Origin: Pyropia yezoensis | Taxonomy: Eukaryota; Rhodophyta; Bangiophyceae; Bangiales; Bangiaceae | Reading direction: 5' to 3' | DNA length: 64,000 nucleotides | Assembly: GCA_009829735.1 (NCBI GenBank) | Contig: CM020619.1 | Coordinates: forward strand, 29,414,063-29,478,062 | In this document: positions 4,974 through 26,474 of the stretch, piece by piece | Numbering within the stretch: the first letter of the stretch is position 1 | Layout of the letters: every line of letters begins with the position of its first letter | The notes under the pieces: model-generated | What the model was told of the DNA's origin: nothing | The model's input: only the letters and a program-made list of their open reading frames with translations | The model's database searches: none | Program-made: the position numbers and the translations under genes

Positions 4974-5336
4974 TGTAGCACAATAGGGATCCGTCGCACG
5001 TCCACTCTCAGGGAACACTCACCAAGGGGGATCGGCACCAACGTCACCGGGAGGCCAAGGTTGCTGTCCTTGGAGCGCAAGCCACGGGACCAAGATGGGA
5101 GCCCAGATGGGAGGGGTTTGTTGTTCTACCTTGGCCGGCGGTGGATTCGCCACCGGCCCCCTCGTTATAAACCCTCGGAGACACTACTAACTACCCTCCA
5201 CCCCAAGATGCAAGTCCCTCTGGTCATACGTAACTTATAGATACCGTGACCAGTACGGACTCTCAAATTGAAAGCCAAGGATTAGAAGTAGCCCCCCTAA
5301 TATTAGGGTTACAATACGGCCAACCATATTGCTACA
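4974..5336 (-). repeat. 3' LTR of element B
   Basis: 363 bp. On the coding (minus) strand it starts TGTAGCA and ends TGCTACA, a 7-bp terminal inverted repeat. It contains a TATAA-like core (GTTTATAACG) near the middle and a perfect 14-bp palindrome CCCTAATATTAGGG near its start. It is near-identical to the copies at 6034-6396, 16417-16779 and 26112-26474. Confidence 0.95.
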
Positions 5337-5927: not shown

Positions 5928-6033
5928 ATGTCGGACCCCCAGGTACCCGGGGACGAGGACGACCTCCTGCCTGAAGAGGGGGAAGAGGTGATGGTGGACG
6001 ACGTTCCCGTCTCCGCCACCGCCGCCGAGTGCT
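5928..6033 (+). pseudogene. ORF3 of element B, N-terminal fragment (35 codons) cut off by element A
   Basis: ATG at 5928 opens 35 codons plus one base of an acidic N-terminus that matches ORF3 of element A with one amino-acid difference. The 5' LTR of A begins at 6034. After removing A and one GTGCT copy the frame continues exactly at 16785, giving 789 codons before the stop, the same as the copy in A. Translation of the fragment now ends inside the LTR of A (TAG at 6036-6038). Confidence 0.9.
6029..6033. repeat. Target-site duplication of element A, left copy (GTGCT)
   Basis: GTGCT precedes the LTR at 6034 and recurs at 16780-16784 directly after the LTR end at 16779. Confidence 0.92.
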
Positions 6034-6396
6034 TGTAGCAATATGGTTGTTCGTATTGTAACCCTAATATTAGGGGGGCTACTTCTAATCCTTGGCTTTC
6101 AATTTGAGAGTCCGTACTGGTCACGGTATCTATAAGTTACGTATGACCAGAGGGACTTGCATCTTGGGGTGGAGGGTAGTTAGTAGTGTCTCCGAGGGTT
6201 TATAACGAGGGGGCCGGTGGCGAATCCACCGCCGGCCAAGGTAGAACAACAAACCCCTCCCATTTAGGCTCCCATCTTGGTCCCGTGGCTTGCGCTCCAA
6301 GGACAGCAACCTTGGCCTCCCGGTGACGTTGGTGCCGATCCCCCTTGGTGAGTGTTCCCTGAGAGTGGACGTGCGACGGACCCCTATTGTGCTACA
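6034..6396 (+). repeat. 5' LTR of element A
   Basis: 363 bp, TGTAGCA...TGCTACA. TATAA at 6201-6205 is a plausible core promoter. The palindrome CCCTAATATTAGGG is at 6062-6075. It differs from the 3' copy at about five positions. Confidence 0.95.
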
Positions 6397-6416: not shown

Positions 6417-6621
6417 GGGTTTCCGTCACCCTTGTGGTGACGCCGTCTTCGGCCCTGGCACACGGATAGGGATCCGGTCCTTTTCTTGTACTCTTGGTGT
6501 TGCGACCTGATCGATTGTGTTGAGTTTTTACCTTTGACTGTGATCTACTGTTACTCTCCCCAATCTACCCCCTCGCTCTCTTATTCGTGGTGATTGTTAC
6601 GTCGGTTGACTGATTGTGACT
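6417..6621 (+). other. gag leader of element A
   Basis: About 205 bases of untranslated leader between PBS and the gag ATG. It becomes AT-richer towards gag (about 6480-6615). No feature beyond the leader is supported. Confidence 0.6.
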
Positions 6622-8805
6622 ATGTCTACCCAAGAGACGGGGAACGTTCAAGATGACGGATCGGCGTCGACGCCGACCCCGGAGGTGACTACGGGAACCG
6701 AGATCGGGAACCCGATCGACAACATTGAGACGCCAATGCGCTCAGGTGCCGGATCGACGTTTGGCACGGCTCGGACGGCAGGAGGCGGGGGCCCGCCTCA
6801 ACTGTCGTCGACCGACCTCACTCCGCCGCCTCCTTCACCAGGGGATTCCCTGATGGCATCATTGGCCCGCATCGAGGCCCGGTTTTCCGGACTCGACGCC
6901 CGTCAAGATCGGACGGAGGACGCAATGGCCGTGTTGATGTCAACACGCCACACGACGGGACCCCGATGTGCTCCTCCCACACCGGTACGGTTCGAACCGG
7001 CCGGACTACTTTCGGAGTCCACCAGGGTCAACCCCGGTGTTGCTACTCCTGGACAACCCCCGGATACAATGGGGTATGGATCCGACTCGTCGGCAGAGTT
7101 GGAACGGAGCCACACGGAGCGATACGCTCGGAGCACCCGAAGCGGACTCCGCGGACACGACCCGGCGGATACTTACGCCGGTGGAGAGTCGGTTATTGGC
7201 GAAGGGGGTACCCTCTCACAGTATCCCCACGACGAAGGAGGCCAGGCAACTCGGGTTCCCGAGGTGCCGACGCCTGAAGTACCATCTTCAGTGGTGGAAG
7301 CTATGACCGCGCAGGTCACTGCGAGCCTACTGAAGCGGATGGAGTCCGATGAGTTTGCTCATCAACTGGCTAAGCGACTGGATATCCAGGACGCTGACAC
7401 GGAGATCGTCAACGAAGTCTTCAGGTCGGTACTGACTCCCGAACGTTATCGTTTGGAAGACCAATCTACCACCGTATCGGAATCGATGCGTAATACGTCG
7501 CACCGAGCGATCCGCTCTATGCAGACCCTTATGAAGGGAGTCCCTATGTTCGGAGGGCCGACCGGACGTCCGTTGGCAGTCATAGGCTTCTTGACTAGCT
7601 TCAAGGCAGCCGCGGACAAGGCCCTCGTTAACGAGGGGCTGGCCCTGGAGATCCTCCCGTTCTTTGTTGATGAAAGGGTGCGAGGCATCCTTCGCCAGGC
7701 ATCCCCAATGCCGGGAATGAGGGTCGCGGCCACCCCCATGGATTACCGTGGGATCCTCAAGGAGCTGCTGAGCAGTTACCTCAGTGAGGACAAGTGCGAG
7801 GACCACTACCGGGCCCTGCGCACTGCCATCGCCCAGAGCTGGGAGGATGAGGAGATGTTTGGACGCCGGATCCAAGAGCTCGACTACGAGCTGGGGAAGC
7901 TCCTCGGTGAAGGGGAACTACGGGCCATCCTGTTCGCAGGAGTACCCAACTACGTGCGGATATCCGCACGGGGAGCCAATACGGCACGGACGAACTTCAG
8001 TCGACTGATGCATATGTGCAAGTCCCTAGGGGACGCCTACCGGGTTCTACACCCGGAGTGTGCTCTGGCCTCAAAGCCCAAGGGTGAGGGGAGCAAGCTC
8101 AATCTTACCCCGGTACCGAGGCAAGAGAAGGTGGAACGTAAGGCCGCACCAGTACTGGTGGCGACCGAACATACCCCTACGGGCGAGGATGAACCTCTAG
8201 TTGACCAGCAGGGCCACCTGCTGCTACCGGCTACGCCGGTGATGGATGAGTACGGTACGGTAGCGTACATCGCCCCGGCTAGGACCCAGTTCCAGTTCAA
8301 CGAGGGAGCGGGACGGCGCGTCCCGTATGTGCGGACTACGGGGTATGCCCCGGTTACGGGTAACCCCCACCAGCCCCTGCCTACATGGGCAGTACGTACG
8401 GAGGCACCTCCGCAGATTGCGGGCCGACCCAACCGGTTGGGGGAGTCCATGTTCCGGTTGACCCAAGGACCCAAGGCCTACCAGGGAGCAGGCACTCGGG
8501 CGCCCGAGGGAGGCAACCGCAGCTACGGGGCTACCCCGATGCGAACTCAAGGAGGGACCGGCACGTCCGGATGTATGTTGTGTGGGGATCCCCAGCACTG
8601 GGTGTCTTCCTGCCCACTCATCCCCGAGGAGTCTCGGCGGGCAGCGGCTCAACGCAAGGCATCCACCGGGGGGTATCCCGCCGGAGCACCCGGACCCGCA
8701 CCGGGTAGGCAGCCAGCTCCAGGTGGAGTACTGGCCGTCGAGGAGGCACCTCCTCAGCCGGATGTCCCGGCGGACAGCACCCTACCAAGGGCGGGAAACG
8801 AGTAA
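6622..8805 (+). CDS. gag: Gag polyprotein, element A
   Basis: 727 aa from ATG 6622; the frame is open two codons further to a GTG at 6616, but ATG is the reasonable start. Gag forms the virus-like particle that packages element RNA. The N-terminal 200 residues are Pro/Thr/Gly-rich and low in complexity. A helical capsid-like region follows (about residues 210-480). A single zinc knuckle C-x2-C-x4-H-x4-C lies at residues 651-664 and would bind RNA. The C-terminus is Pro/Ala-rich and ends AGNE before TAA. Pol starts 8 bases later in the -1 frame, and a slippery heptamer overlaps the last codons, so Gag-Pol is probably made by frameshifting. The copy in element B is nearly identical. Subdomain limits are inferred; the zinc knuckle is seen directly. 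Confidence 0.92.
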   Translation: MSTQETGNVQDDGSASTPTPEVTTGTEIGNPIDNIETPMRSGAGSTFGTARTAGGGGPPQLSSTDLTPPPPSPGDSLMASLARIEARFSGLDARQDRTEDAMAVLMSTRHTTGPRCAPPTPVRFEPAGLLSESTRVNPGVATPGQPPDTMGYGSDSSAELERSHTERYARSTRSGLRGHDPADTYAGGESVIGEGGTLSQYPHDEGGQATRVPEVPTPEVPSSVVEAMTAQVTASLLKRMESDEFAHQLAKRLDIQDADTEIVNEVFRSVLTPERYRLEDQSTTVSESMRNTSHRAIRSMQTLMKGVPMFGGPTGRPLAVIGFLTSFKAAADKALVNEGLALEILPFFVDERVRGILRQASPMPGMRVAATPMDYRGILKELLSSYLSEDKCEDHYRALRTAIAQSWEDEEMFGRRIQELDYELGKLLGEGELRAILFAGVPNYVRISARGANTARTNFSRLMHMCKSLGDAYRVLHPECALASKPKGEGSKLNLTPVPRQEKVERKAAPVLVATEHTPTGEDEPLVDQQGHLLLPATPVMDEYGTVAYIAPARTQFQFNEGAGRRVPYVRTTGYAPVTGNPHQPLPTWAVRTEAPPQIAGRPNRLGESMFRLTQGPKAYQGAGTRAPEGGNRSYGATPMRTQGGTGTSGCMLCGDPQHWVSSCPLIPEESRRAAAQRKASTGGYPAGAPGPAPGRQPAPGGVLAVEEAPPQPDVPADSTLPRAGNE
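8793..8799 (+). promoter_or_regulatory. Probable -1 ribosomal frameshift site, element A
   Basis: The heptamer G GGA AAC is in the X XXY YYZ phase relative to gag, two codons before the gag TAA (8803-8805). A -1 slip reads GGG AAA CGA and continues without a stop into the pol frame and its ATG at 8814. GC-rich downstream sequence (from about 8819) could form a stimulatory stem. The same heptamer is present in elements B and C. Confidence 0.75.
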
Positions 8806-8813: not shown

Positions 8814-11800
8814 ATGACCGGGGGGCGCTGGGGTAACCCAAGCAAGCCACCCCGGAGTACCGCGGGGAAAGCCCCACGGAGAGCGCGGTTGAGCCGACGC
8901 CGCATCAACCCCCGGGTACACCTTCCGGCCCCGACGACACGGCGTCAGGGGATTGATGACCAACCACCAAGGTTTGGAGGAGAGGACGGGAAGCCCCGTC
9001 ACATGGAACCAGACAAGGGCCCTGTTCAGGATGCCCGAGCTACACCGGATATCGGTGTAGGCCACGTGCTGTTTACCTTGGAGAACTTCAAGGTATCAGC
9101 CACACTGGGGGTTGACCCCCAGTCGACACGATCGTACTACCCTGTACTGGATACAGGGGCTGGACCCAACCTTATCCGGAAGGATACCCTCCCGGACAAG
9201 TGGCTTCCGCGAGTCAGAGTGACTCGGGGACCCACCATCAAGGACGCGAATGGTCGCCTCATTCGTACGACCGCAGCGATGTCGCTGCGGGTTACCATCG
9301 GGGAACTCACCACGGAAGTCGACTTCCTGGTGTGTGAGACCCTATCGGTGCCCTGCATACTGGGGTGCACCTTCATCAACGTTCACGTTGATGCAATCCG
9401 GCCAGGCCGGAGGACCGTCGAGCTTCAAGAAGCCGACGGGACGAAGCGAGGACACACGGCTATCGTCAGGGACCTGACGCTACAAGGGAGCCACGTTAAC
9501 GTGGCTGAGGTGTACGCAAGTGTCGAGCCGAAGACACTTCGGTTGGCCAAGCGAACTCGCTTTGAGCCGTTGTCGGAGACAGTCCTCCCGGTTAACTGTG
9601 ACCTCGCAGGCATCTGCAGAGTCAAGTCCAACCTGCGGACGTACAAGCGCCATGGGTTGACCATGGCCAACGGTCTCATAGACCTCCCATCAGGAGGGTC
9701 GTCCCTCCTAGTGATGGCGAACTATCGCCGTAAGGCAGTCACCCTCCCGAAAGGAACTATCCTCGGGATTGCAGAGCTCTACGAAGGAGATATTCTTACC
9801 CCTGACAAGGAAGGTCAAGTGGACCCACTTGAGGTGCTGGCGGTCGCCGAGACCACCGAGCGACAGCAACCCGATGACGGGAAGCCTAGTCGACCATCAT
9901 TACCGGCGGATATTCCGCCGAAGGACCAAGAAGCATTGAAGGCACTGGCCGAGGCTGACCTCGACCACCTTCCCCCTTCGGTAGCCGAAGGGGTACGACG
10001 GATGCTAAGAAAGCATGACGTCATGTGGACAGGCGGGGCCTTGGGTACCATTGGGGCAACCCAACATCGTATAGACCTGGTACAAGGTGCGCGACCCGCC
10101 CGGTCACAGCCGCACCGAGCGGGACCTATGCAACGAGAGATCATTGATGGAGAAGTGAAGAGGATGAGCGAAGCGAAGGTGATACGACCTTCGATGTCGG
10201 AGTGGGGTGCCCCAGTCGTTATCGTACCGAAGAAGGATCAAACCCCTCGGTTTTGCATCGATTATCGACGCCTCAACTTGGTTACCAAGAAGGACTCCTA
10301 CCCTTTACCAAGGATGGATGAATGCATCGACTCCCTGGGGGAAGCTACGGTGTTTACCACCATCGACTGCAATGCCGGATACTGGCAGATCCCGGTGGCG
10401 GACGAGGATATCCCCAAGACGGCGTTTGTCTGTCACAGTGGAGTGTACGAGTTCCTAAGGATGCCCTTCGGATTGTCCAACGCCCCCGCTACATTCCAGC
10501 GGGCTATCGACATTATACTGTCGGGGGTGAAGTGGCGTAACTGCCTAGTGTACCTCGATGACGTCATCGTCTTCTCGCGTAACATGGATGACCATGTGCA
10601 ACACGTTGACGAGGTACTCACCCTCTTGCGTAACGCCGGGGTAACCCTGCGTCTGAAGAAGTGCGCCTTCTTCCAACAGACGGTCGAGTACCTGGGCCAC
10701 CAGATAACCCCTGGTAAACTAGGGGTACTCGAAGCCAATACCCGGGCACTCCGGGATGCCCGGTTCCCTAACACCCAGACACAGCTCAAGAGCTTCCTGG
10801 GAATGTGCAATGTATACCGACGGTTCGTCAAGGACTTCGCTCGGATAGCTAAACCGTTAACGGTTCTTACGAGCAGTACCCTGCCCAAGGTACTCCAACC
10901 CCCTTCGCCTAGCGAAGAGGAGGCATTCGAGTCGCTGAAGCGAGCCCTACTATCCCCACCCGTCCTTGCGTTACCGCACCGACGGGGTACCTTCGTCATC
11001 GATGTCGATGCGTGCGACACCCAAGTGGGATGCACCCTGCTACAGGGGGAGACGTTGATCGGTACCGATAACGTTATCCCGGACCTACGTCCGGTAGGAT
11101 ACTTCAGCCGGACACTCAACCCGGCTGAGCGTAACTATAGTGCCACCGAGCGTGAATGCCTCGGAGTTATATGGGCAGTGCAACTGCTCCGTCCATACCT
11201 GGAGGGCTCCAGGTTCATCGTGAGGTCCGACCACGAACCCCTACGATGGCTCCTCAACCTTGGTGACAAGGATTCCGATAGCCATGGGAGGCTAGCCCGA
11301 TGGAGGCTAAAAATGGCCGAGCACGACTACCGTACCGTGTATCAGGCTGGGTCAACCCACCATCTCGGAGACGCATTGTCTCGACTCGACACCCCGAGCG
11401 GGGATACCCGCCCGGTGGACGAGGACATCCCGGTGGTACCGGTCTGCATGGTGGGTAACGCTACCCAAGGTATGGTTGACCATACCATGGCACACCGAGC
11501 ATGCCCACTAACCCTCGCGGACTTCCGCGAGGCAAAAGCCAATGACGACGACTGTAGACGTCATCGCGCTAACCTCCTGGCCGGTACGGCCGGCATGTTC
11601 TCCGAGAACGAAGACGGACTCATATACCGGCGGGCACCCGCCGATGGACGACATCAAGTCGTGGTTCCCGTGTCCTTACGGCAAGCCGTCATGGAACGAG
11701 AACACGAGAACCCCACAGCCGGACACCCGGGGGGTTCACGTATGTTCGCAGCAATGCGAAGGTTCTTCTACTGGCCAGCAATGGCCGTCGACGTGGTCGA

Positions 11801-12980
11801 CCACGTAAGGGGATGCCACCCCTGTGCGCGTAACCGCATGAGTCTACATAGGCAGGCGTCTGCCATGAAGCTATTGCCACCCGATGGGCCCAAAGGGCAA
11901 GTCGCTATCGACATACTCGGGCCACTTCCGGTAACGGAAGAAGGGAACAGGTACATCCTGGTCATGTCTGACCGCTTCACTAAGCTGTCACGAGCGGCAG
12001 CCATCCCGAATGATACGGCATACACGATTATGAACGCAGTGGTTGACCACTGGATCAGTGCATACGGAGTCATGAAGCAACTCCTCTCCGACAACGGAAC
12101 AAACCTTACGTCAGCATTCTGCACTAAGGTCCTGGGCATGTTCGGTATCGAACCACGTCGGGCATCCGACTACCACCCGCAAACCAACGGGCAGGTGGAG
12201 CGGTTCAACCGCACCATCGTCAAGATGCTACAGTGCTACGTGGCCGAGCACACGAACACTTGGGACAGGCTTCTGTCTGTACTCACCCTGGCATACAATG
12301 CCAGGCCACATCGGAGCACAAACATCGCTCCGCTGGAGTGGGTCATGCCACTAGGCGTCGGTAACCTGACGCTGCCACCAGGCAGGTGCACTCGGTATGA
12401 TACACCGAAGGGCCGACCGGCCGAACGTATCCACCTAGCTTGGTTGGCCAAGCTGTCGTGGATGATTCCTAAGCTCAAGGGTGCCCTTGACAGAACACAA
12501 CTTCGATATAAGAAGAACTTCGACACCCGGTTACGGGTGCGCAACGCTACCCTGGTAACAGGTGACTGGGTCTATATCAGACACCAGAAGCTCCGGGGCA
12601 ATAAGCTCATGCAACCGGTCAAGGGACCGTACCAGATTCTCCACAGAGATGACCACTCTGTTATCTTACACTCCGATACGGAGATCCAACGCATCAGTGT
12701 GAATGATGTCACACCTGCTCCGAAGCTGGAACAGCCTCAGCCGGTACCGGCTGGGTTGCTACATGAAGCTCTTACAACCCACCGGTCAGATGACCCGGTG
12801 GGACCGGATGGGATCCCATACCAAGTAGAGAGCGTGGTCGGACACACCGACCCGGACCTACCAGAACCCCGGTACGTCAAGGTTATGTGGGTCGGATACG
12901 ACTCACCCACCTGGGAACAGGCGGCAAATATACCCCGCCAACTACTCATGTCTTACATGAGGCGACGACGCCTACTGTAA
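8814..12980 (+). CDS. pol: Pol polyprotein, element A: protease, RT, RNase H, integrase, chromodomain
   Basis: 1388 aa counted from ATG 8814; it is probably made as Gag-Pol by -1 frameshifting. Domains: aspartic protease with DTGAG at residue 113; reverse transcriptase with PRFCIDYRRLN, PFGLSNAPATFQ and YLDD at 580-583; RNase H from about 725 (IDVDACD, ATERE, SDHEPL, LGDALSRL); integrase with an H-H-C-C zinc-binding region near 969-1005 and a catalytic triad D1033, D1093, E1129 with exactly 35 residues between the last two. The C-terminus (about 1335-1385) is a chromodomain-like segment with a YQVESVVGH start, a VMWVGY core and TWE. In chromoviruses this module directs integration to marked chromatin. 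No frame defects are visible. Element B has the same protein with about 16 to 18 visible substitutions. Confidence 0.96.
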   Translation: MTGGRWGNPSKPPRSTAGKAPRRARLSRRRINPRVHLPAPTTRRQGIDDQPPRFGGEDGKPRHMEPDKGPVQDARATPDIGVGHVLFTLENFKVSATLGVDPQSTRSYYPVLDTGAGPNLIRKDTLPDKWLPRVRVTRGPTIKDANGRLIRTTAAMSLRVTIGELTTEVDFLVCETLSVPCILGCTFINVHVDAIRPGRRTVELQEADGTKRGHTAIVRDLTLQGSHVNVAEVYASVEPKTLRLAKRTRFEPLSETVLPVNCDLAGICRVKSNLRTYKRHGLTMANGLIDLPSGGSSLLVMANYRRKAVTLPKGTILGIAELYEGDILTPDKEGQVDPLEVLAVAETTERQQPDDGKPSRPSLPADIPPKDQEALKALAEADLDHLPPSVAEGVRRMLRKHDVMWTGGALGTIGATQHRIDLVQGARPARSQPHRAGPMQREIIDGEVKRMSEAKVIRPSMSEWGAPVVIVPKKDQTPRFCIDYRRLNLVTKKDSYPLPRMDECIDSLGEATVFTTIDCNAGYWQIPVADEDIPKTAFVCHSGVYEFLRMPFGLSNAPATFQRAIDIILSGVKWRNCLVYLDDVIVFSRNMDDHVQHVDEVLTLLRNAGVTLRLKKCAFFQQTVEYLGHQITPGKLGVLEANTRALRDARFPNTQTQLKSFLGMCNVYRRFVKDFARIAKPLTVLTSSTLPKVLQPPSPSEEEAFESLKRALLSPPVLALPHRRGTFVIDVDACDTQVGCTLLQGETLIGTDNVIPDLRPVGYFSRTLNPAERNYSATERECLGVIWAVQLLRPYLEGSRFIVRSDHEPLRWLLNLGDKDSDSHGRLARWRLKMAEHDYRTVYQAGSTHHLGDALSRLDTPSGDTRPVDEDIPVVPVCMVGNATQGMVDHTMAHRACPLTLADFREAKANDDDCRRHRANLLAGTAGMFSENEDGLIYRRAPADGRHQVVVPVSLRQAVMEREHENPTAGHPGGSRMFAAMRRFFYWPAMAVDVVDHVRGCHPCARNRMSLHRQASAMKLLPPDGPKGQVAIDILGPLPVTEEGNRYILVMSDRFTKLSRAAAIPNDTAYTIMNAVVDHWISAYGVMKQLLSDNGTNLTSAFCTKVLGMFGIEPRRASDYHPQTNGQVERFNRTIVKMLQCYVAEHTNTWDRLLSVLTLAYNARPHRSTNIAPLEWVMPLGVGNLTLPPGRCTRYDTPKGRPAERIHLAWLAKLSWMIPKLKGALDRTQLRYKKNFDTRLRVRNATLVTGDWVYIRHQKLRGNKLMQPVKGPYQILHRDDHSVILHSDTEIQRISVNDVTPAPKLEQPQPVPAGLLHEALTTHRSDDPVGPDGIPYQVESVVGHTDPDLPEPRYVKVMWVGYDSPTWEQAANIPRQLLMSYMRRRRLL

Positions 12981-13459
12981 CAACCCAACCGACACCGACT
13001 TCGGCTGTTGGGGGGTGAGGCTTATACCTACTAAGTAGGGTGTGACATGGTTACGGCAGACTTAGGTTTCCAAGTCAAATCAGACTTAGGTTTCTAAGTC
13101 GGACCAAGCTTCGGTAACTAAGTAGAGCCAAGCTTAGGTAACTAAGTAAAACCTGAACCTCAATAAGTTAACTTAAAGGTAAAGGCTAACCTCGATAATA
13201 TCGAAGTAACTAGAGGGTTTACACGGGAGGATGACCTCCCAAAGCCAAGACACAAAGTGAGGGAGGATAATATCCCCAAGCATGAACCAACCGGAAGAAG
13301 TTGGACGGGAGGCAAGGCACCACTGAGCCAGAAGGGGCACTCCCCAGGGCAGCAAACAGAGGCAAGCAATGCCCCCAGCGGGGGATGAGTTTACACTCAC
13401 TACTACCCGGCCACCATGAGGGCCACCGGGTCCCTCTTTTATACAAACAATAACACTCC
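12981..13459. other. Convergent 3' region between pol and ORF3, element A
   Basis: About 480 bases where pol (plus) and ORF3 (minus) converge. It is AT-richer than the genes, contains CCTACTAAGTAGG (about 13026-13038), and the palindromic tandem repeat at 13059-13154. It probably supplies transcript ends for both strands. No ORF is supported. Confidence 0.55.
13059..13154. repeat. Four imperfect 24-bp tandem repeats, each self-complementary
   Basis: Four adjacent units of about 24 bp. The first two are GACTTAGGTTTCCAAGTC and GACTTAGGTTTCTAAGTC, near-perfect hairpins. The next two are variants with AAGCTT(C/A)GGTAACTAAGT. An equivalent array is at about 19376-19470 in element B. Confidence 0.7.
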
Positions 13460-15829
13460 TCAGTGGGTAGACCCACTGCCCGAGGGAGGCCACTCACGCG
13501 TAAGCGCGTATACCTCCGTGCTCCACCGGTCGGCAATGTCACGACGGTCGATCACCCGAGTTACCTCGGTGCATGGCTGGACGAGGGTGCTGCGGCCAGC
13601 CTCCACGTCCTCCAGAGCTTTCTGGAGGCGGTCCAGCACGCCACCGAAGCAACGCGCTGACCCAACCAGCGCAGCACCTGGGGGGATATCCCCCCAGCTA
13701 ACAGAGAGACCCTCCCGCATTGCGCGGGCAACAAGGGCGTCAACGCCTTCATACCAGAGACAGGGACCCCCGTCATTCATGACAGGGGCGGGAGGTGACA
13801 CTGGCGCAGCCAGAGGAGCCACAGGAGCCGACACGGCTACCACCGGAGCCGGTGGCACCTGATACGAGGCCCGGTAGGACCCTACCGAAGGGGCTCCACC
13901 GTAACCCCGGCGGGGCTCCGCCCGACGACGGGACACCTCACGCTCCCCACCCGCAGAGCCCCACTCTCGGGGACGACGGCCAACCGCCGCCGGTATCGGG
14001 TTACCGAACCACGGGGCAAGGACCTGAAGAGGGTCATGGATAACCATGGGAATACCCAGGTCAGGAACGGCCTCGGTGGACGCCCACCCATGGCAACTAG
14101 GCTCACCCGGCTGAGTACGCCGGATACGCAACGAGCGACGAGGCAAGGGGGTAGCCCCAGCCTGCGGGTCCCGGTACGGGGGAAGGGCCAACACCCCAGC
14201 CCAGTTCACGGCATCGTGAACAGCCAGCAGGGCCTCGAACTCCCGGGCCAACCCGGTCTTGGCAGCTATCAGGTCCACGCCCAACTGCGCGATGTGCCGA
14301 CGGACACCCGTCGGAAGATGAAACAGGCGCCCCTGCCGGCGGACGGACAGCAGGAAGGAGGACGCCTGCCCGAGGGTAACCTCAAGGGTAAAGGTACCTT
14401 GCAACGGGTGGACCGGCCGGGAGGCCAACACACTCCCGAAGTATCGGAGACAGGAGCCGGTGTCAAACCGGAAAGCAGGGGCGGGTTCCAACCCCTCCTG
14501 CCATAGCGGCGGGCGCACGGGAGTGTATACCGGCGCACGACCGTTGCCGGTCTGCAACGCACACGTTATATCCGTGCGAAACGCATCCGCCATGACACCA
14601 TGGTTACGTCGCCAGCTCGACGCCGACTTCAACCCCGCCATAGGCGGGTAGGGAGCAGCCAACGACAGATACGGGGGTACCCTCTGGTAGTAGTCAAAGT
14701 CGGGATACCGACCGGTATCGCCCACCGTCTCCCCGAACGCAACCGGCGCCGCCGCCGCCGCAATCCCCCGAGCACTAGCCGGGTAGTCAACCTCCCGCGG
14801 CAACGCGGGAGCAATCAGGTCGCATACCCCGAAGGCGGGGTCGAGGTAGACCTCACCCCGTCCCACCCGAGTACGCCAGAGCTGCGCATGCCGGTCGTCC
14901 GGCTGACTCAGGATCCAATGGTGTTCCACTCGCACCGCGTTCGGCTGGTTGACCAGCCGCACCAACTCCCGCTCCCAACTCGGGTCCACCTTGACGCGCC
15001 GGGAGGACTCTCCACGGGGATGGGGCAGGTGGAAGTCCACCTGCATCCGCCCATCGGACTCCATTGACTCTTGCACAGTCAGGCCTCGAACCCGAGCCAC
15101 CAAGTCGAACATCGACATGGCGGGTTGACCCGCCGCCACGGCGACGCCGCCACCCAACGGGGCAACCCGGGAAGGACCAGGAAGAATAGGGGGCGCCGGG
15201 GGATGCCCCACGGGAAGAGGGGCCGGCGCCGGAGTCGCACGCGGCCGAAGAGGAAGAAGAAGGGCGGGCGCCCGCCCGGAGTAACTACCGGAGTCCACTG
15301 CCATCGGTGTAGACCCACCTTGACCACCAGACGCCCGCGGCACCGCGGGCAGAGCATCGCCGCCACCCGGACCCGACGTGGGTACCACGGGGGCAGCACG
15401 GGTAGACCCGCTACCCGCAGCCGCGGATGATCCACCCGGACGGGCACCCGCGCCGTCTTGACCCACCGTCCCGGTTGGGGTGCCACCATAACCGCCCGAC
15501 ACGTCGACGACGCCGTCTTGAGGTTGAGCCGCGCCGGCACCGGCGACAAAAGCCATCGGGGCCGCCGGAGGAGTAGGGGTAGACGCAGCAGCTACCCGCG
15601 GTTGCCCGCCACCTGACGGAGCCGTCGTGCCGCTGCACACGGACGACAAGCCGCCCGGAGCACCGTCCGGGGCCACACGAACGATCACCCGGTCGTCCTC
15701 GTCCTCCGACGAGCTCGCTAGGAAGCACTCGGCGGCGGTGGCGGAGACGGGAACGTCGTCCACCATCACCTCTTCCCCCTCTTCAGGCAGGAGGTCGTCC
15801 TCGCCCCCGGGTACCTGGGGGTCCGACAT
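13460..15829 (-). CDS. ORF3, antisense third gene of element A, function unknown
   Basis: 789 aa from ATG 15829; the frame is open further upstream but only from a GTG. It is encoded opposite to gag-pol, between pol and the 3' LTR. Visible layout: acidic N-terminus (1-50), low-complexity Gly/Ala/Pro/Ser linker (about 50-235), a folded-looking core (about 238-560) rich in W, Y, F and R, a Pro-rich linker (about 600-685), and a C-terminal domain (about 685-789) starting NDGGP and ending in a charged helix. No transmembrane segment, zinc finger, nuclease or polymerase motif was found. The same gene, equally long, is in element B, and a diverged relative is in element D. This argues that it is a real, conserved element gene. 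It could be a structural or accessory protein, or a captured host gene; I do not recognise the family. Confidence 0.8.
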   Translation of the reverse strand: MSDPQVPGGEDDLLPEEGEEVMVDDVPVSATAAECFLASSSEDEDDRVIVRVAPDGAPGGLSSVCSGTTAPSGGGQPRVAAASTPTPPAAPMAFVAGAGAAQPQDGVVDVSGGYGGTPTGTVGQDGAGARPGGSSAAAGSGSTRAAPVVPTSGPGGGDALPAVPRASGGQGGSTPMAVDSGSYSGRAPALLLPLRPRATPAPAPLPVGHPPAPPILPGPSRVAPLGGGVAVAAGQPAMSMFDLVARVRGLTVQESMESDGRMQVDFHLPHPRGESSRRVKVDPSWERELVRLVNQPNAVRVEHHWILSQPDDRHAQLWRTRVGRGEVYLDPAFGVCDLIAPALPREVDYPASARGIAAAAAPVAFGETVGDTGRYPDFDYYQRVPPYLSLAAPYPPMAGLKSASSWRRNHGVMADAFRTDITCALQTGNGRAPVYTPVRPPLWQEGLEPAPAFRFDTGSCLRYFGSVLASRPVHPLQGTFTLEVTLGQASSFLLSVRRQGRLFHLPTGVRRHIAQLGVDLIAAKTGLAREFEALLAVHDAVNWAGVLALPPYRDPQAGATPLPRRSLRIRRTQPGEPSCHGWASTEAVPDLGIPMVIHDPLQVLAPWFGNPIPAAVGRRPREWGSAGGEREVSRRRAEPRRGYGGAPSVGSYRASYQVPPAPVVAVSAPVAPLAAPVSPPAPVMNDGGPCLWYEGVDALVARAMREGLSVSWGDIPPGAALVGSARCFGGVLDRLQKALEDVEAGRSTLVQPCTEVTRVIDRRDIADRWSTEVYALTREWPPSGSGSTH

Positions 15830-16402
15830 GGTGCAACCGGGGTGGCAGGGGCGCCCCTTGCAGAAAAGCCGAGGCCGGCTCGACCCGGTACAGAGAACGC
15901 TCGCACGGACGAGCCAGGGAAGCGCGGGCACTCGCGCGTATAACCACACAGCTCAGCACGAGCGATACGGTAGCGCGGGACGACCCGCGCCAGCCGAGCT
16001 ACGGGGGCGCTCCACCCAGGCACCTGGACCGGAGCCACGCCCCCCCCACACGGGGTAAGCAAGGGGGGTCACCCCCAACCGCCCCCGCGCAACGCGGGCA
16101 GTTCCCGCCCCCACTCAATCGTCCACTCGAGAGGGGCCCCCCTACCACCAGGCACCTGGTGGCGGATCCGCTTGCACCACCCCTCGGAAAGGGGGGTCGT
16201 GAACAGAACCCGCATCGGGAATTTAACGGTCCGGAAAACGGATCGTGTGTGTGCCACACAAAGGGGGGCACCCCCCTCAGACAACCTCGAAAAGGGGTGT
16301 CTGTCGCGACGGGGCGCAAAGCCCCCCCCGACGGGTAAACGGTCACGCGACCCACTTACATTCGGTAACCCGAATGCAACTCGACCCGAGGACGGGCCGA
16401 AT
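15830..16402 (-). other. Leader of ORF3 in element A
   Basis: About 570 bases between the ORF3 start and the polypurine tract. It carries the same hairpin-rich segment as element B (16140-16400) and a conserved patch near the start codon (15830-15925). A patch at about 15940-16130 matches element B poorly. It likely holds the ORF3 promoter or 5' UTR. Confidence 0.5.
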
Positions 16403-16416
16403 CTAAGGGGGGGATA
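16403..16416 (+). other. Polypurine tract of element A
   Basis: CTAAGGGGGGGATA directly precedes the 3' LTR at 16417. It matches the tract of element B. Confidence 0.78.
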
Positions 16417-16779
16417 TGTAGCAATATGGTTGTCCGTATTGTAACCCTAATATTAGGGGGGCTACTTCTAATCCTTGGCTTTCAATTTGAGAGTCCGTAC
16501 TGGTCACGGTATCTATAAGTTACGTATGACCAGAGGGACTTGCATCTTGGGGTGGAGGGTAGTTAGTAGTGTCTCCGAGGGTTTATAACGAGGGGGCCGG
16601 TGGCGAATCCACCGCCGGCCAAGGTAGAACAACAAACCCCTCCCATCTGGGCTCCCATATTGGTCCCGTGGCTTGCGCTCCAAGGACAGCAACCTTGGCC
16701 TCCCGGTGACGTTGGTGCCGATCCCCCTTGGTGAGTGTTCCCTGAGAGTGGACGTGCGACGGATCCCTATTGTGCTACA
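16417..16779 (+). repeat. 3' LTR of element A
   Basis: 363 bp, TGTAGCA...TGCTACA, near-identical to 6034-6396. It is followed by the target duplication GTGCT and then by the continuation of ORF3 of element B. Confidence 0.95.
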
Positions 16780-16784
16780 GTGCT
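16780..16784. repeat. Target-site duplication of element A, right copy (GTGCT)
   Basis: It matches 6029-6033. Together they define the 5-bp staggered cut made when A integrated into ORF3 of B. Confidence 0.92.
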
Positions 16785-19048
16785 TCCTAGCGAGCTCGTC
16801 GGAGGACGATGACGACCGGGTGACCGTTCGTGTGGCTCCGGACGGCGCGCCGGGCGGGTTGTCGTCCGAGTGTAGCGGCACGACGGCTCCGTCGGGTGGC
16901 GGACAACCGCGTGCAGCGGTGGCTTCTACCGCTTCTCCTCCGGCGGCCCGGATGGCTTCTGTCGCCGGTACCGGCGTGGCTCTACCTCAAGACGGTGTCG
17001 CCGGCGTGGCGGATGGTGGTGTTGGCACTCCGTCCAGTCCGGCGGGTCAAGACAGCGCGGGTGCCCGCCCGGTTGGTGTGTCCGCTGCGGCGGGTAGCGG
17101 GTCTACCCGTGCTGCCCCCGTGGTACCCACGTCGGGTCCGGGTGGCGGCGATGCTCTGCCCGCGGTGCCGCGGGCGTCTGGTGGTCAAGGTGGGTCTATA
17201 CCGATGGCAGTGGACTCCGGTAGTTACTCCGGGCGGGCGCCCGCCCTTCTTCTTCCTCTTCGGCCGCGTGCGACTCCGGCGCCGGCCCCTCTTCCCGTGG
17301 GGCATCCCCCGGCGCCCCCTATTCTTCCTGGTCCTGCCCGGGTTGCCCCGTTGGGTGGCGGCGTCGCCGTGGCGGCGGGTCAACCCGCCATGTCGATGTT
17401 CGACTTGGTGGCTCGGGTTCGAGGCCTGACTGTGCAAGAGTCAATGGAGTCCGATGGGCGGATGCAGGTGGACTTCCACCTGCCCCATCCCCGTGGAGAG
17501 TCCTCCCGGCGCGTCAAGGTGGACCCGAGTTGGGAGCGGGAGTTGGTGCGGCTGGTCAACCAGCCGAACGCGGTGCGAGTGGAACACCATTGGATCCTGA
17601 GTCAGCCGGACGACCGGCATGCGCAGCTCTGGCGTACTCGGGTGGGACGGGGTGAGGTCTACCTCGACCCCGCCTTCGGGGTATGCGACCTGATTGCTCC
17701 CGCGTTGCCGCGGGAGGTTGACTACCCGGCTAGTGCTCGGGGGATTGCGGCGGCGGCGGCGCCGGTTGCGTTCGGGGAGACGGTGGGCGATACCGGTCGG
17801 TATCCCGACTTTGACTACTACCAGAGGGTACCCCCGTATCTGTCGTTGGCTGCTCCCTACCCGCCTATGGCGGGGTTGAAGTCGGCGTCGAGCTGGCGAC
17901 GTAACCATGGTGTCATGGCGGATGCGTTTCGCACGGATATAACGTGTGCGTTGCAGACCGGCAACGGTCGTGCGCCGGTATACACTCCCGTGCGCCCGCC
18001 GCTATGGCAGGAGGGGTTGGAACCCGCCCCTGCTTTCCGGTTTGACACCGGCTCCTGTCTCCGATACTTCGGGAGTGTGTTGGCCTCCCGGCCGGTCCAC
18101 CCGTTGCAAGGTACCTTTACCCTTGAGGTTGCCCTCGGGCAGGCGTCCTCCTTCCTGCTGTCCGTCCGCCGGCAGGGGCGCCTGTTTCATCTTCCGACGG
18201 GTGTCCGTCGGCACATCGCGCAGTTGGGCGTGGACCTGATAGCTGCCAAGACCGGGTTGGCCCGGGAGTTCGAGGCCCTGCTGGCTGTTCACGATGCCGT
18301 GAACTGGGCTGGGGTGTTGGCCCTTCCCCCGTACCGGGACCCGCAGGCTGGGGCTACCCCCTTGCCTCGTCGCTCGTTGCGTATCCGGCGTACTCAGCCG
18401 GGTGAGCCTAGTTGCCATGGGTGGGCGTCCACCGAGGCCGTTCCTGACCTGGGTATTCCCATGGTTATCCATGACCCTCTTCAGGTCCTTGCCCCGTGGT
18501 TCGGTAACCCGATACCGGCGGCGGTTGGCCGTCGTCCCCGAGAGTGGGGCTCTGCGGGTGGGGAGCGTGAGGTGTCCCGTCGTCGGGCGGAGCCCCGCCG
18601 GGGTTACGGTGGAGCCCCTTCGGTAGGGTCCTACCGGGCCTCGTATCAGGTGCCACCGGCTCCGGTGGTAGCCGTGTCGGCTCCTGTGGCTCCTCTGGCT
18701 GCGCCAGTGTCACCTCCCGCCCCTGTCATGAATGACGGGGGTCCCTGTCTCTGGTATGAAGGCGTTGACGCCCTTGTTGCCCGCGCAATGCGGGAGGGTC
18801 TCTCTGTTAGCTGGGGGGATATCCCCCCAGGTGCTGCGCTGGTTGGGTCAGCGCGTTGCTTCGGTGGCGTGCTGGACCGCCTCCAGAAAGCTCTGGAGGA
18901 CGTGGAGGCTGGCCGCAGCACCCTCGTCCAGCCATGCACCGAGGTAACTCGGGTGATCGACCGTCGTGACATTGCCGACCGGTGGAGCACGGAGGTATAC
19001 GCGCTTACGCGTGAGTGGCCTCCCTCGGGCAGTGGGTCTACCCACTGA
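16785..19048 (+). pseudogene. ORF3 of element B, main part, separated from its start by element A
   Basis: Continues ORF3 from the split Phe codon at the insertion point to the TGA at 19046-19048 (754 codons plus the stop). From about residue 150 to the end it differs from the copy in element A at only a handful of positions. Residues about 40-150 differ at roughly 25 to 30 positions. The frame is also open upstream through the LTR of A, so an LTR-initiated fusion is formally possible, but the ATG-started gene is at 5928. The insertion leaves this copy without its native leader and start. Confidence 0.88.
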
Positions 19049-19527: not shown

Positions 19528-22500
19528 TTACAGTAGGCGTCGTCGCCTCATGGAAGGCATGAGGAGTTGGCGGGGTATATTTGCCGCCTGTTCCCAGGTG
19601 GGTGAGTCGTATCCGACCCACATAACCTTCACGTACCAGGGTCCTGGTAGGTTCGGGTCGGTGTGTCCGACCACGCTCTCTACTTGGTATGGAATCCCAT
19701 CCGGTCCCACCGGGCCATCTGACCGGTGGGTTGTAAGAGCTTCATGTAGCAACCCAGCCGGTACCGGCTGAAGCTGTTCCAGCTTCGGAGCAGGTGTGAC
19801 ATCATTCACACTGATGCGTTGGATCTCCGTATCGGAGTGTAAGATAACAGAGTGGTCATCTCTGTGGAGAATCTGGTACGGTCCCTTGACCGGTTGCATG
19901 AGCTTATTGCCCCGGAACTTCTGGTGTCTGATATAGACCCAGTCACCTGTTACCAGGGTAGCGTTGCGCACCCGTAACCGGGTGTCGAAGTTCTTCTTAT
20001 ATCGAAGTTGTGTTCTGTCAAGGGCACCCTTGAGCTTAGGAATCATCCACGACAGCTTGGCCAACCAAGCTAGGTGGATACGTTCGGCCGGTCGGCCTTT
20101 CGGTGTATCATACCGAGTGCACCTGCCTGGTGGCAGCGTCAGGTTACTGACGCCTAGTGGCATGACCCACTCCAGCGGAGCGATGTTCGTGCTCCGATGC
20201 GGCCTGGCATTGTATGCCAGGGTGAGTACGGACAGAAGCCTGTCCCAAGTGTTCGTGTGCTCTGCCACGTAGCACTGTAGCATCTTGACGATGGTGCGGT
20301 TGAACCGCTCCACCTGCCCGTTGGTTTGCGGGTGGTAGTCGGATGCCCGACGTGGTTCGATACCGAACATGCCCAGGACCTTAGTGCAGAATGCTGACGT
20401 AAGGTTTGTTCCGTTGTCGGAGAGGAGTTGCTTCATGACTCCGTATGCACTGATCCAGTGGTCAACCACTGCGTTCATAATCGTGTATGCCGTATCATTC
20501 GGGATGGCTGCCGCTCGTGACAGCTTAGTGAAGCGGTCAGACATGACCAGGATGTACCTGTTCCCTTCTTCCGTTACCGGAAGTGGCCCGAGTATGTCGA
20601 TAGCGACTTGCTCTTTGGGCCCATCGGGTGGCAATAGCTTCATGGCAGACGCCTGCCTATGTAGACTCATGCGGTTACGTGCACAGGGGTGGCACCCCCT
20701 TACGTGGTCGACCACGTCGACGGCCATTGCTGGCCAGTAGAAGAACCTTCGCATTGCTGCGAACATACGTGAACCCCCCGGGTGTCCGGCTGTGGGGTTC
20801 TCGTGTTCTCGTTCCATGACGGCTTGCCGTAAGGACACGGGAACCACGACTTGATGTCGTCCATCGGCGGGTGCCCGCCGGTATATGAGTCCGTCTTCGT
20901 TCTCGGAGAAGATGCCGGCCGTACCGGCCAGGAGGTTAGCGCGATGACGTCTACAGTCGTCGTCATTGGCTTGTGCCTCGCGGAAGTCCGCGAGGGTTAG
21001 TGGGCATGCTCGGTGTGCCATGGTATGGTCAACCATACCTTGGGTAGCGTTACCCACCATGCAGACCGGTACCACCGGGATGTCCTCGTCCACCGGGCGG
21101 GTATCCCCGCTCGGGGTGTCGAGGCGAGACAATGCGTCTCCGAGATAGTGGGTTGACCCAGCCTTATACACGGTACGGTAGTCGTGCTCGGCCATTTTTA
21201 GCCTCCATCGGGCTAGCCTCCCATGGCTATCGGAATCCTTGTCACCAAGGTTGAGGAGCCATCGTAGGGGTTCGTGGTCGGACCTCACGATGAGCCTGGA
21301 GCCCTCCAGGTATGGACGGAGCAGTTGCACTGCCCATATAACTCCGAGGCATTCACGCTCGGTGGCACTATAGTTACGCTCAGCCGGGTTGAGTGTCCGG
21401 CTGAAGTATCCTACCGGACGTAGGTCCGGGATAACGTTATCGGTACCGATCAACGTCTCCCCCTGTAGCAGGGTGCATCCCACTTGGGTGTCGCACGCAT
21501 CGACATCGATGACGAAGGTACCCCGTCGGTGCGGTAACGCAAGGACGGGTGGGGATAGTAGGGCTCGCTTCAGCGACTCGAATGCCTCCTCTTCGCTAGG
21601 CGAAGGGGGTTGGAGTACCTTGGGCAGGGTACTGCTCGTAAGAACCGTTAACGGTTTAGCTATCCGAGCGAAGTCCTTGACGAACCGTCGGTATACATTG
21701 CACATTCCCAGGAAGCTCTTGAGCTGTGTCTGGGTGTTAGGGAACCGGGCATCCCGGAGTGCCCGGGTATTGGCTTCGAGTACCCCTAGTTTACCAGGGG
21801 TTATCTGGTGGCCCAGGTACTCGACCGTCTGTTGGAAGAAGGCGCACTTCTTCAGACGCAGGGTTACCCCGGCGTTACGCAAGAGGGTGAGTACCTCGTC
21901 AACGTGTTGCACATGGTCATCCATGTTACGCGAGAAGACGATGACGTCATCGAGGTACACTAGGCAGTTACGCCACTTCACCCCCGACAGTATAATGTCG
22001 ATAGCCCGCTGGAATGTAGCGGGGGCGTTGGACAATCCGAAGGGCATCCTTAGGAACTCGTACACTCCACTGTGACAGACGAACGCCGTCTTGGGGATAT
22101 CCTCGTCCGCCACCGGGATCTGCCAGTATCCGGCATTGCAGTCGATGGTGGTAAACACCGTAGCTTCCCCCAGGGAGTCGATGCATTCATCCATCCTTGG
22201 TAAAGGGTAGGAGTCCTTCTTGGTAACCAAGTTGAGGCGTCGATAATCGATGCAAAACCGAGGGGTTTGATCCTTCTTCGGTACGATAACGACTGGGGCA
22301 CCCCACTCCGACATCGAAGGTCGTATCACCTTCGCTTCGCTCATCCTCTTCACTTCTCCATCAATGATCTCTCGTTGCATAGGTCCCGCTCGGTGCGGCT
22401 GTGACCGGGCGGGTCGCGCACCTTGTACCAGGTCTATACGATGTTGGGTTGCCCCAATGGTACCCAAGGCCCCGCCTGTCCACATGACGTCATGCTTTCT

Positions 22501-23694
22501 TAGCATCCGTCGTACCCCTTCGGCTACCGAAGGGGGAAGGTGGTCGAGGTCAGCCTCGGCCAGTGCCTTCAATGCTTCTTGGTCCTTCGGCGGAATATCC
22601 GCCGGTAATGATGGTCGACTAGGCTTCCCGTCATCGGGTTGCTGTCGCTCGGTGGTCTCGGCGACCGCCAGCACCTCAAGTGGGTCCACTTGACCTTCCT
22701 TGTCAGGGGTAAGGATATCTCCTTCGTAGAGCTCGGCAATCCCGAGGATAGTTCCCTTCGGGAGGGTGACTGCCTTACGGCGATAGTTCGCCATCACTAG
22801 GAGGGACGACCCTCCTGATGGGAGGTCTATGAGACCGTTGGCCATGGTCAACCCATGGCGCTTGTACGTCCGCAGGTTGGACTTGACTCTGCAGACGCCT
22901 GCGAGGTCACAGTTAACCGGGAGGACTGTCTCCGACAACGGCTCAAAGCGAGTTCGCTTGGCCAACCGAAGTGTCTTCGGCTCGACACTTGCGTACACCT
23001 CAGCCACGTTAACGTGGCTCCCTTGTAGCGTCAGGTCCCTGACGATAGCCGTGTGTCCTCGCTTCGTCCCGTCGGCTTCTTGAAGCTCGACGGTCCTCCG
23101 GCCTGGCCGGATTGCATCAACGTGAACGTTGATGAAGGTGCACCCCAGTATGCAGGGCACCGATAGGGTCTCACACACCAGGAAGTCGACTTCCGTGGTG
23201 AGTTCCCCGATGGTAACCCGCAGCGACATCGCTGCGGTCGTACGAATGAGGCGACCATTCGCGTCCTTGATGGTGGGTCCCCGAGTCACTCTGACTCGCG
23301 GAAGCCACTTGTCCGGGAGGGTATCCTTCCGGATAAGGTTGGGTCCAGCCCCTGCATCCAGTACAGGGTAGTACGATCGTGTCGACTGGGGGTCAACCCC
23401 CAGTGTGGCTGATACCTTAAAGTTCTCCAAGGTAAACAGCACGTGGCCTACACCGATATCCGGTGTAGCTCGGGCATCCTGAACAGGGCCCTTGTCTGGT
23501 TCCATGTGACGGGGCTTCCCGTCCTCTCCTCCAAACCTTGGTGGTTGGTCATCAATCCCCTGACGCCGTGTCGTCGGGGCCGGAAGGTGTACCCGGGGGT
23601 TGATGCGGCGTCGGCTCAACCGCGCTCTCCGTGGGGCTTTCCCCGCGGTACTCCGGGGTGGCTTGCTTGGGTTACCCCAGCGCCCCCCGGTCAT
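19528..23694 (-). CDS. pol: Pol polyprotein, element B, protease active site altered
   Basis: 1388 aa, same length and domain order as pol of A: protease, RT with YLDD, RNase H, integrase with D, D, E, and a C-terminal chromodomain. The frame is fully open. The notable change is in the protease: the catalytic DTG is DAG, from a single A-to-G transition (ACA to GCA). In retroviral-type aspartic proteases the Thr of D-T/S-G stabilises the active-site dimer, so activity may be reduced; that is inference. Other substitutions are scattered, including two in the chromodomain linker (EPR to GPW) and two near the C-terminus (SYM to PSM). Pol is expressed in the -1 frame relative to gag as in A. Confidence 0.93.
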   Translation of the reverse strand: MTGGRWGNPSKPPRSTAGKAPRRARLSRRRINPRVHLPAPTTRRQGIDDQPPRFGGEDGKPRHMEPDKGPVQDARATPDIGVGHVLFTLENFKVSATLGVDPQSTRSYYPVLDAGAGPNLIRKDTLPDKWLPRVRVTRGPTIKDANGRLIRTTAAMSLRVTIGELTTEVDFLVCETLSVPCILGCTFINVHVDAIRPGRRTVELQEADGTKRGHTAIVRDLTLQGSHVNVAEVYASVEPKTLRLAKRTRFEPLSETVLPVNCDLAGVCRVKSNLRTYKRHGLTMANGLIDLPSGGSSLLVMANYRRKAVTLPKGTILGIAELYEGDILTPDKEGQVDPLEVLAVAETTERQQPDDGKPSRPSLPADIPPKDQEALKALAEADLDHLPPSVAEGVRRMLRKHDVMWTGGALGTIGATQHRIDLVQGARPARSQPHRAGPMQREIIDGEVKRMSEAKVIRPSMSEWGAPVVIVPKKDQTPRFCIDYRRLNLVTKKDSYPLPRMDECIDSLGEATVFTTIDCNAGYWQIPVADEDIPKTAFVCHSGVYEFLRMPFGLSNAPATFQRAIDIILSGVKWRNCLVYLDDVIVFSRNMDDHVQHVDEVLTLLRNAGVTLRLKKCAFFQQTVEYLGHQITPGKLGVLEANTRALRDARFPNTQTQLKSFLGMCNVYRRFVKDFARIAKPLTVLTSSTLPKVLQPPSPSEEEAFESLKRALLSPPVLALPHRRGTFVIDVDACDTQVGCTLLQGETLIGTDNVIPDLRPVGYFSRTLNPAERNYSATERECLGVIWAVQLLRPYLEGSRLIVRSDHEPLRWLLNLGDKDSDSHGRLARWRLKMAEHDYRTVYKAGSTHYLGDALSRLDTPSGDTRPVDEDIPVVPVCMVGNATQGMVDHTMAHRACPLTLADFREAQANDDDCRRHRANLLAGTAGIFSENEDGLIYRRAPADGRHQVVVPVSLRQAVMEREHENPTAGHPGGSRMFAAMRRFFYWPAMAVDVVDHVRGCHPCARNRMSLHRQASAMKLLPPDGPKEQVAIDILGPLPVTEEGNRYILVMSDRFTKLSRAAAIPNDTAYTIMNAVVDHWISAYGVMKQLLSDNGTNLTSAFCTKVLGMFGIEPRRASDYHPQTNGQVERFNRTIVKMLQCYVAEHTNTWDRLLSVLTLAYNARPHRSTNIAPLEWVMPLGVSNLTLPPGRCTRYDTPKGRPAERIHLAWLAKLSWMIPKLKGALDRTQLRYKKNFDTRLRVRNATLVTGDWVYIRHQKFRGNKLMQPVKGPYQILHRDDHSVILHSDTEIQRISVNDVTPAPKLEQLQPVPAGLLHEALTTHRSDGPVGPDGIPYQVESVVGHTDPNLPGPWYVKVMWVGYDSPTWEQAANIPRQLLMPSMRRRRLL

Positions 23695-23702
23695 CCTTCC
23701 TC

Positions 23703-25886: not shown

Positions 25887-26111
25887 AGTCACAATCAGTC
25901 AACCGACGTAACAATCACCACGAATAAGAGAGCGAGGGGGTAGATTGGGGAGAGTAACAGTAGATCACAGTCAAAGGTAAAAACTCAACACAATCGATCA
26001 GGTCGCAACACCACGAGTACAAGAAAAGGACCGGATCCCTATCCGTGTGCCAGGGCCGAAGACGGCGTCACCACAAGGGTGACGGAAACCCGTCCCCTGC
26101 TGCTCCACCAA
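25887..26111 (-). other. gag leader and primer-binding site of element B
   Basis: The PBS (complement of 26092-26110) is the same 19-mer as in element A, one base from the LTR. The rest is untranslated leader, AT-richer near gag. Confidence 0.8.
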
Positions 26112-26474
26112 TGTAGCACAATAGGGATCCGTCGCACGTCCACTCTCAGGGAACACTCACCAAGGGGGATCGGCACCAACGTCACCGGGAGGCCAAGGTT
26201 GCTGTCCTTGGAGCGCAAGCCACGGGACCAAGATGGGAGCCCAGATGGGAGGGGTTTGTTGTTCTACCTTGGCCGGCGGTGGATTCGCCGCCGGCCCCCA
26301 CGTTATAAACCCTCGGAGACACTACTAACTACCCTCCACCCCAAGATGCAAGTCCCTCTGGTCATACGTAACTTATAGATACCGTGACCAGTACGAACTA
26401 TCAAATTGAAAGTTAAGGGTTAGAAGTAGCCCCCCTAATATTAGGGTTACAATACGGCCAACCATATTGCTACA
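26112..26474 (-). repeat. 5' LTR of element B
   Basis: 363 bp. It differs from the 3' copy (4974-5336) at about seven positions, several clustered at 26398-26421. It is followed on the right by the target duplication AGTAC. Confidence 0.95.

What the first reader, a model, noticed from the sequence alone, without database searches (positions are those of the whole stretch)
13460..15829. Antisense third gene (ORF3) carried by algal-type chromoviruses
A 789-codon gene lies between pol and the 3' LTR but reads towards pol. It is open and equally long in A and (before its split) B. Antisense ORFs beyond pol are known from some plant Ty3/gypsy elements such as Grande, but I cannot match this sequence to a known family. 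It has an acidic N-terminus, long disordered linkers, an aromatic-rich core and a conserved C-terminal domain. It could be a structural, regulatory or captured host protein with its own promoter near the 3' LTR.
Basis: partly seen in the sequence, partly recalled or inferred. Interest (0 to 1): 0.88.

Follow-up and report, generated by a model that had tools for sequence, protein, structure and literature searches.

The report
Backward third gene in seaweed retrotransposons
Three distantly related jumping-gene families of a red seaweed each carry, behind their two usual genes, a third gene that reads backwards; selection has kept its protein in the two families that could be tested, so it is a real gene of a new protein family whose job is still unknown.

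Summary
Element A has a 789-codon gene on the opposite strand between pol and the 3' LTR. Of the 57 best copies scored in this genome (93-100% identical) 47 have no stop; a DNA tag of the core finds 575 places. Variants favour third codon positions (203/178/296) and replacements are depleted (N/S 0.60 of neutral, 0.39 for shared variants; pol 3' end 0.34 and 0.12). It is a protein gene, not chance.

New here: two other chromovirus-like families in the same genome (pol 40-46% identical to A's) also carry an antisense ORF in the same place. The cores are related: A-C hhalign E 3.6e-6, C-D BLASTP E 1e-8; A-D only through C. In C the gene is under stronger constraint (N/S 0.11, three copies) than the 3' part of pol (0.19). 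Pyropia vietnamensis has relatives. No Pfam or PDB match.

So: a new family of antisense accessory gene, analogous to but not a member of the plant Retand/Grande (TRP28) kind; most likely a nuclear regulatory protein made from its own antisense transcript (inferred). No RNA, structure or functional test could be run.

The parts
13460..15829 (-). ORF3 of element A, antisense third gene, 789 codons
   Evidence: open frame, selection, relatives
6616..8805 (+). gag of element A
   Evidence: 729-codon frame; weak zinc knuckle, E 0.072
8814..12980 (+). pol of element A: protease-like, RT, RNase H, integrase, weak chromodomain
   Evidence: Pfam
6034..6396 (+). 5' LTR of A; GTGCT target duplication on its left
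16417..16779 (+). 3' LTR of A; GTGCT target duplication on its right
15830..16416 (-). leader upstream of ORF3; possible site of an antisense promoter (inferred)
   Evidence: position; 12-17% mismatch to the window copy in 15930-16129, 1.7-2.7% in 16130-16417
12981..13459 (.). spacer between the convergent pol and ORF3, with a 24-base tandem repeat at 13085-13153
16780..19048 (+). larger piece of element B's ORF3 (B lies on the - strand, so its ORF3 reads +)
   Evidence: tblastn, 95% identical
5928..6033 (+). N-terminal piece of element B's ORF3, cut off by A's insertion
   Evidence: tblastn residues 1-36
19528..25892 (-). pol (19528-23694) and gag (23703-25892) of element B
26112..26474 (-). 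5' LTR of element B; AGTAC target duplication on its right
4974..5336 (-). 3' LTR of element B; AGTAC target duplication on its left
1..1986 (-). part of ORF3 of element D (runs 129 bases beyond the window start), antisense to D's pol in L058; one in-frame stop at 1516-1518
2732..4897 (-). decayed RT/RNase H part of an element C copy, interrupted by B
26537..28392 (-). protease fragment and gag of the same element C copy

Best explanation
ORF3 is a genuine protein-coding third gene of a group of red-algal Ty3/gypsy chromovirus-like elements, on the strand opposite to gag-pol, between pol and the 3' LTR. Shown: it is open in most copies examined, it evolves as a protein in families A and C, and related antisense genes sit in the same place in three families whose pol proteins are 40-46% identical. 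Inferred: it was present before these families split. Inferred mechanism: an antisense mRNA starts in the leader or the adjoining 3' LTR and yields a soluble, probably nuclear accessory protein (acidic N-terminus, disordered linkers, conserved core, basic stretches, in C an arginine/serine-rich tail) that acts on the element's own transcription, RNA handling or chromatin, as proposed in print for the plant Grande and Retand antisense proteins.
For: 47 of 57 scored copies without stop; N/S 0.60 (0.525-0.703), 0.39 for shared variants, codon positions p 3.6e-8; family C N/S 0.11 (0.06-0.17), positions 13/6/72; A-C z 14.75 and hhalign E 3.6e-6, C-D z 11.65 and BLASTP E 1e-8; nine opposite-strand controls z below 1; relatives in P. 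vietnamensis; no transmembrane-like stretch (max 19-residue hydropathy 1.37 in A, 1.23 in C) and a +11 stretch of 60 residues near C's end; Grande gene23 is nuclear and has its own antisense promoter (PMC7264820, sections and passages read).
Against: No transcript, peptide, structure or localisation data. A-D relation is not significant directly (z 1.2; hhalign probability 1.3%), and C-terminal segments are not shown related. ORF3 of A is less constrained than pol, with singletons near neutral (0.77). C rests on three copies, D on one copy with a stop. The nuclear and regulatory role is inferred from composition and analogy alone.
Confidence: 0.55

Rival explanations
1. ORF3 is a self-limiting factor: a protein (or its transcript) made antisense that restrains the element's own transposition, a copy-number control.
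For: Antisense position fits; antisense RNA of yeast Ty1 restrains transposition (passage in PMC4007536), and PMC7264820 names antisense silencing as an option.
Against: A purely RNA-level control would not need a conserved protein, yet replacements are depleted in A and C. The family has hundreds of tagged copies.
Confidence: 0.15
2. ORF3 is a structural or particle-associated protein (capsid-like, or envelope-like).
For: The core is large and rich in hydrophobic and aromatic residues.
Against: No similarity to gag of A or C (six comparisons, z -0.7 to 1.1, positive control gagA-gagC z 18.5); no transmembrane-like stretch; antisense, not sense as env is.
Confidence: 0.12
3. ORF3 is a captured host gene that rides along without function for the element.
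For: No similarity to known element proteins; disordered linkers.
Against: Selection within element copies; related genes in three families in the same place; the two protein searches listed no clear host gene.
Confidence: 0.05
4. The long frame is a by-product of base composition or of coding on the pol strand.
For: G+C is high; the mirror frame that shares third positions also shows low N/S (0.67 in A, 0.29 in C).
Against: That mirror frame has 20 stops in A; shuffles reach at most 522 codons; protein-level relatives exist only in the antisense reading.
Confidence: 0.02

Closest known systems
Antisense ORFs of plant Retand, Grande and RIRE2 elements (Retand: TRP28, PF04195; PMC11963269, PMC7264820)
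   [quoted passage not shown] for Retand)
   Different: No PF04195 match (E up to 10 in the last two); Retand is a non-chromovirus lineage of flowering plants, whereas these pols end in a chromodomain-like segment
PvRetro13 (bean) and Boty (Botrytis) antisense ORFs (named in PMC7264820)
   Same: Antisense, between pol and 3' LTR
   Different: PvRetro13 ORF2 is described with an SMC domain; no sequence of either was compared here
Hypothetical proteins of Pyropia vietnamensis (MMPV_009242, MMPV_008948 and eight more)
   Same: 44-51% identical to ORF3 A depending on the alignment; P0007 begins with a similar acidic segment
   Different: Shorter gene models; whether they lie antisense to a pol could not be checked
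HBZ, the antisense protein of HTLV-1 (recalled)
   Same: Antisense gene read from the 3' end; suggested model for how ORF3 might work
   Different: No sequence relation tested or expected

Membership tests
Ty3/gypsy chromovirus (elements A, C, D) | pol order RT, RNase H, integrase | tested here: met
   Pfam on A, on the part of C and on the part of D held
Ty3/gypsy chromovirus (elements A, C, D) | chromodomain at the end of integrase | tested here: inconclusive
   PF00385 in the right place but under the curated cut-off of 25.1 bits: A 13.3, D 20.2, C 20.4; nine relatives align over it
Antisense additional ORF (aORF-3R) of LTR retrotransposons | ORF antisense to gag-pol between pol and 3' LTR | tested here: met
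   A; C: three copies; D: one copy, (D's 3' LTR not delimited)
Antisense additional ORF (aORF-3R) of LTR retrotransposons | kept in most copies and conserved like other element proteins | tested here: met
   A: 47 of 57 best copies without stop, N/S 0.60 against 0.34 for pol 3' end; C: 0.11 against 0.19
Antisense additional ORF (aORF-3R) of LTR retrotransposons | antisense transcription | not testable with these tools
   no RNA data held
Retand TRP28 protein | Transposase_28 domain PF04195 | tested here: not met
   not listed for ORF3 A and its four relatives, C or D
Envelope-like third gene | sense orientation and transmembrane segment | tested here: not met
   antisense; maximum 19-residue hydropathy 1.37 (A) and 1.23 (C)

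The most novel reading that the evidence does not exclude
One ancient antisense gene is a standard third gene of a whole clade of red-algal chromovirus-like elements, older than the split of families whose pol proteins are 40-46% identical. It defines a new protein family with a shared core, independent of the plant TRP28 genes, so that antisense accessory genes arose at least twice in Ty3/gypsy elements, for a common need.
Probability: 0.55. Interest if true: 0.75.

Novelty: new variant of a known kind. Interest (0 to 1): 0.62.

Why it matters
What antisense genes of LTR retrotransposons do is an open question stated in the two papers read in part (PMC7264820, PMC11963269). This case offers an independent, conserved gene in high copy number in one compact genome, with three diverged versions of the protein, so that shared core residues can be told from noise. 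If RNA and protein data confirm it, such genes are a recurrent solution that chromodomain-type elements use too.

Tried and rejected
Known families: Pfam and solved structures gave only chance-level matches. IMG/VR scans gave no relative for ORF3 A, pol, ORF3 D or ORF3 C. Gag as source of ORF3: six comparisons, z -0.7 to 1.1. Coding on the other strand: the mirror frame sharing third positions gives 0.67 in A but has 20 stops; the remaining four frames give 1.2-1.5. ORF3-free subfamily: I followed six pol-tag places whose ORF3 tag was not among the 100 exact places listed (575 in all); three hold full-length ORF3 (one frameshifted), three are truncated or broken by other insertions. The difference between 892 pol tags and 575 ORF3 tags is not explained further; the pol tag codes for a motif that many integrases share. 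Linkage of ORF3 to pol in P. vietnamensis: no P. vietnamensis pol among the 120 of 192 hits listed, so it stays open. C-terminal segment shared by the families: A-D z 2.3 (14 of 500 shuffles as high), A-C and C-D nothing. The first hhalign run used a global setting by mistake, repeated locally. One search printed target duplications one base off; those given here are read.

Full report
What is there. The only named relatives of ORF3 in two protein searches are from Pyropia vietnamensis, a bangialean red alga, so the host is probably a bangialean; size and three large contigs recall Neopyropia yezoensis (recalled, not tested). Element A is an LTR element on the + strand: LTRs 6034-6396 and 16417-16779 (363 bp), target duplication GTGCT, gag 6616-8805, pol 8814-12980, and on the - strand ORF3 13460-15829. 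A sits in ORF3 of element B (- strand, LTRs 4974-5336 and 26112-26474, duplication AGTAC), and B sits in pol of a decayed element C copy. The LTR pairs differ at 5 (A) and 7 (B) of 361 compared bases, so both insertions look young.

Is ORF3 more than chance? In 1000 first-order Markov shuffles of the region the longest open frame in any of six frames had median 222 and maximum 522 codons, against 789. The genome search scored 57 copies, 93-100% identical over all 789 residues; 47 of 57 had no stop. These are the best-scoring copies, so the intact share of the whole family is lower. A 41-base tag of the core occurs at 575 places with up to 3 mismatches, a pol tag at 892; reversed controls gave 0. 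Six pol-tag places whose ORF3 tag was not among the 100 exact places listed were followed: L049-L051 carry full-length ORF3 (L049 frameshifted), L052-L054 are truncated or broken by other insertions. Six places cannot show that ORF3 is present throughout.

Selection. I fetched 40 further copies; 36 align without gaps, four were left out, and six of the 36 have internal stops. Each distinct variant was counted once against the window copy, with expectations from the observed mutation spectrum. ORF3: 387 replacement, 280 silent and 10 stop variants against 460, 201 and 16 expected; N/S 0.60; singletons 0.77, variants in 2-5 copies 0.37, in 6 or more 0.41; all 10 stops are singletons. Codon-bootstrap interval 0.525-0.703, codon positions 203/178/296 (p 3.6e-8); three other reference copies give 0.60-0.62. 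The last 1002 bases of pol in 31 copies give 0.34, shared variants 0.12, with stops in nine copies. So ORF3 is a selected protein gene, less constrained than this part of pol. Constraint is strongest at codons 1-79, 475-632 and 712-790 (0.41-0.46), weak at 80-237 (0.81-0.83), 317-395 (0.76) and 633-711 (0.95). Of the five other frames four give 1.2-1.5; the mirror frame that shares third positions gives 0.67 but has 20 stops.

Other families. Element C's family was sought with its RT piece: 88 copies scored, many with a 1380-codon pol frame. Three copies were read beyond pol. All three have an antisense frame of 724 codons (one with a stop) between pol and the end of the shared element sequence; from its ATG it is 647 codons. 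A third family, D, has pol on the + strand just left of the window (L058) and an antisense ORF3 from window 1986 to 129 bases beyond the window start, with one stop in this copy. Pol of C and D is 40% and 46% identical to A's over the parts compared.

Are these ORF3s related? A-C: Smith-Waterman 185 against a maximum of 92 in 300 shuffles (z 14.75); hhalign E 3.6e-6, probability 87.5%, 182 columns, 27% identity. C-D: 154 against 103 (z 11.65); hhalign E 4.3e-5, probability 69%; BLASTP E 1e-8 for the single comparison. P. vietnamensis-C: z 9.1. A-D: z 1.2, hhalign probability 1.3%; P. vietnamensis-D: z -0.2; neither significant. The relation of A to D therefore rests on C. Nine of nine opposite-strand comparisons of A and C give z below 1. 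C-terminal segments are not shown to be related. In C, ORF3 has 72 silent, 18 replacement and one stop variant, N/S 0.11 (0.06-0.17), positions 13/6/72, p 1.5e-19, against 0.19 for the 3' part of C's pol; only three copies.

Age. In a tree of 38 pol sequences A, C and D fall in one clade of 13 rows (99/99), A on one side (92/91), C and D on the other (92/84); they are not a clade by themselves (0% of 200 bootstrap trees). The other ten rows come from unnamed assemblies whose ORF3 status could not be read; one, P0014, is very close to C's pol. The simplest reading is that ORF3 was already antisense in the common ancestor of the clade. Exchange of ORF3 between families is not excluded.

What it may do. 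No Pfam or PDB relative. Residues 1-60 of A have net charge -15; linkers are rich in P, G, S and A; there is no transmembrane-like stretch; C has a +11, arginine/serine-rich stretch near its end. This suits a soluble, probably nuclear accessory protein, which is inference. PMC7264820 (part 1 of 3 of the text, section 7 and passages seen) describes antisense ORFs of Grande, RIRE2, Retand, PvRetro13 and Boty, and a nuclear gene23 product with an antisense promoter of its own. PMC11963269 (abstract, part 1 of section 11, section 12) makes TRP28 typical of Retand, function unknown. The ORF3 described here has the same position but fails the TRP28 test.

In print? Eight searches listed no paper on an antisense third gene in red-algal chromoviruses; I saw the listings (titles and starts of abstracts; two of the searches found more papers than they listed), and of PMC8220671, PMC4007536 and PMC9289625 passages only. 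Chromoviruses of red algae as such are known (abstract start of PMC3605345). Most subscription papers are not in the library.

Verdict.

Noticed in passing
window 1-28392: Threefold nest: element A in ORF3 of B, B in pol of a decayed C copy, with the 3' part of a fourth element (D) beside C at the window start.
   Followed up: yes
window 15360-15660 and 15930-16129: The window copy differs from the 40 other copies by 7-12% and 12-17% here, against mostly 1-7% elsewhere in ORF3 and leader, as if A were a mosaic or this part evolves fast.
   Followed up: no
protein P0013 (P. vietnamensis MMPV_000838): Gene model that joins the N-terminal part of an ORF3 to a stretch that looks gag-like by eye (untested); perhaps a nested insertion or a model error.
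   Followed up: no
window 47614-47772, 48879-48985 and 62476-62623: Partly complementary repeats about 14 kb apart in very G+C-rich DNA.
   Followed up: no
window 6397-6420: Sequence after the 5' LTR (TTGGTGGAGCAGCAGGG...) is a plausible primer-binding site; the tRNA was not identified.
   Followed up: no
L042 pol 3' ends in general (31 copies): Nine of 31 pol 3' ends carry a stop while six of 36 ORF3s do: ORF3 is at least as often intact as this part of pol.
   Followed up: no
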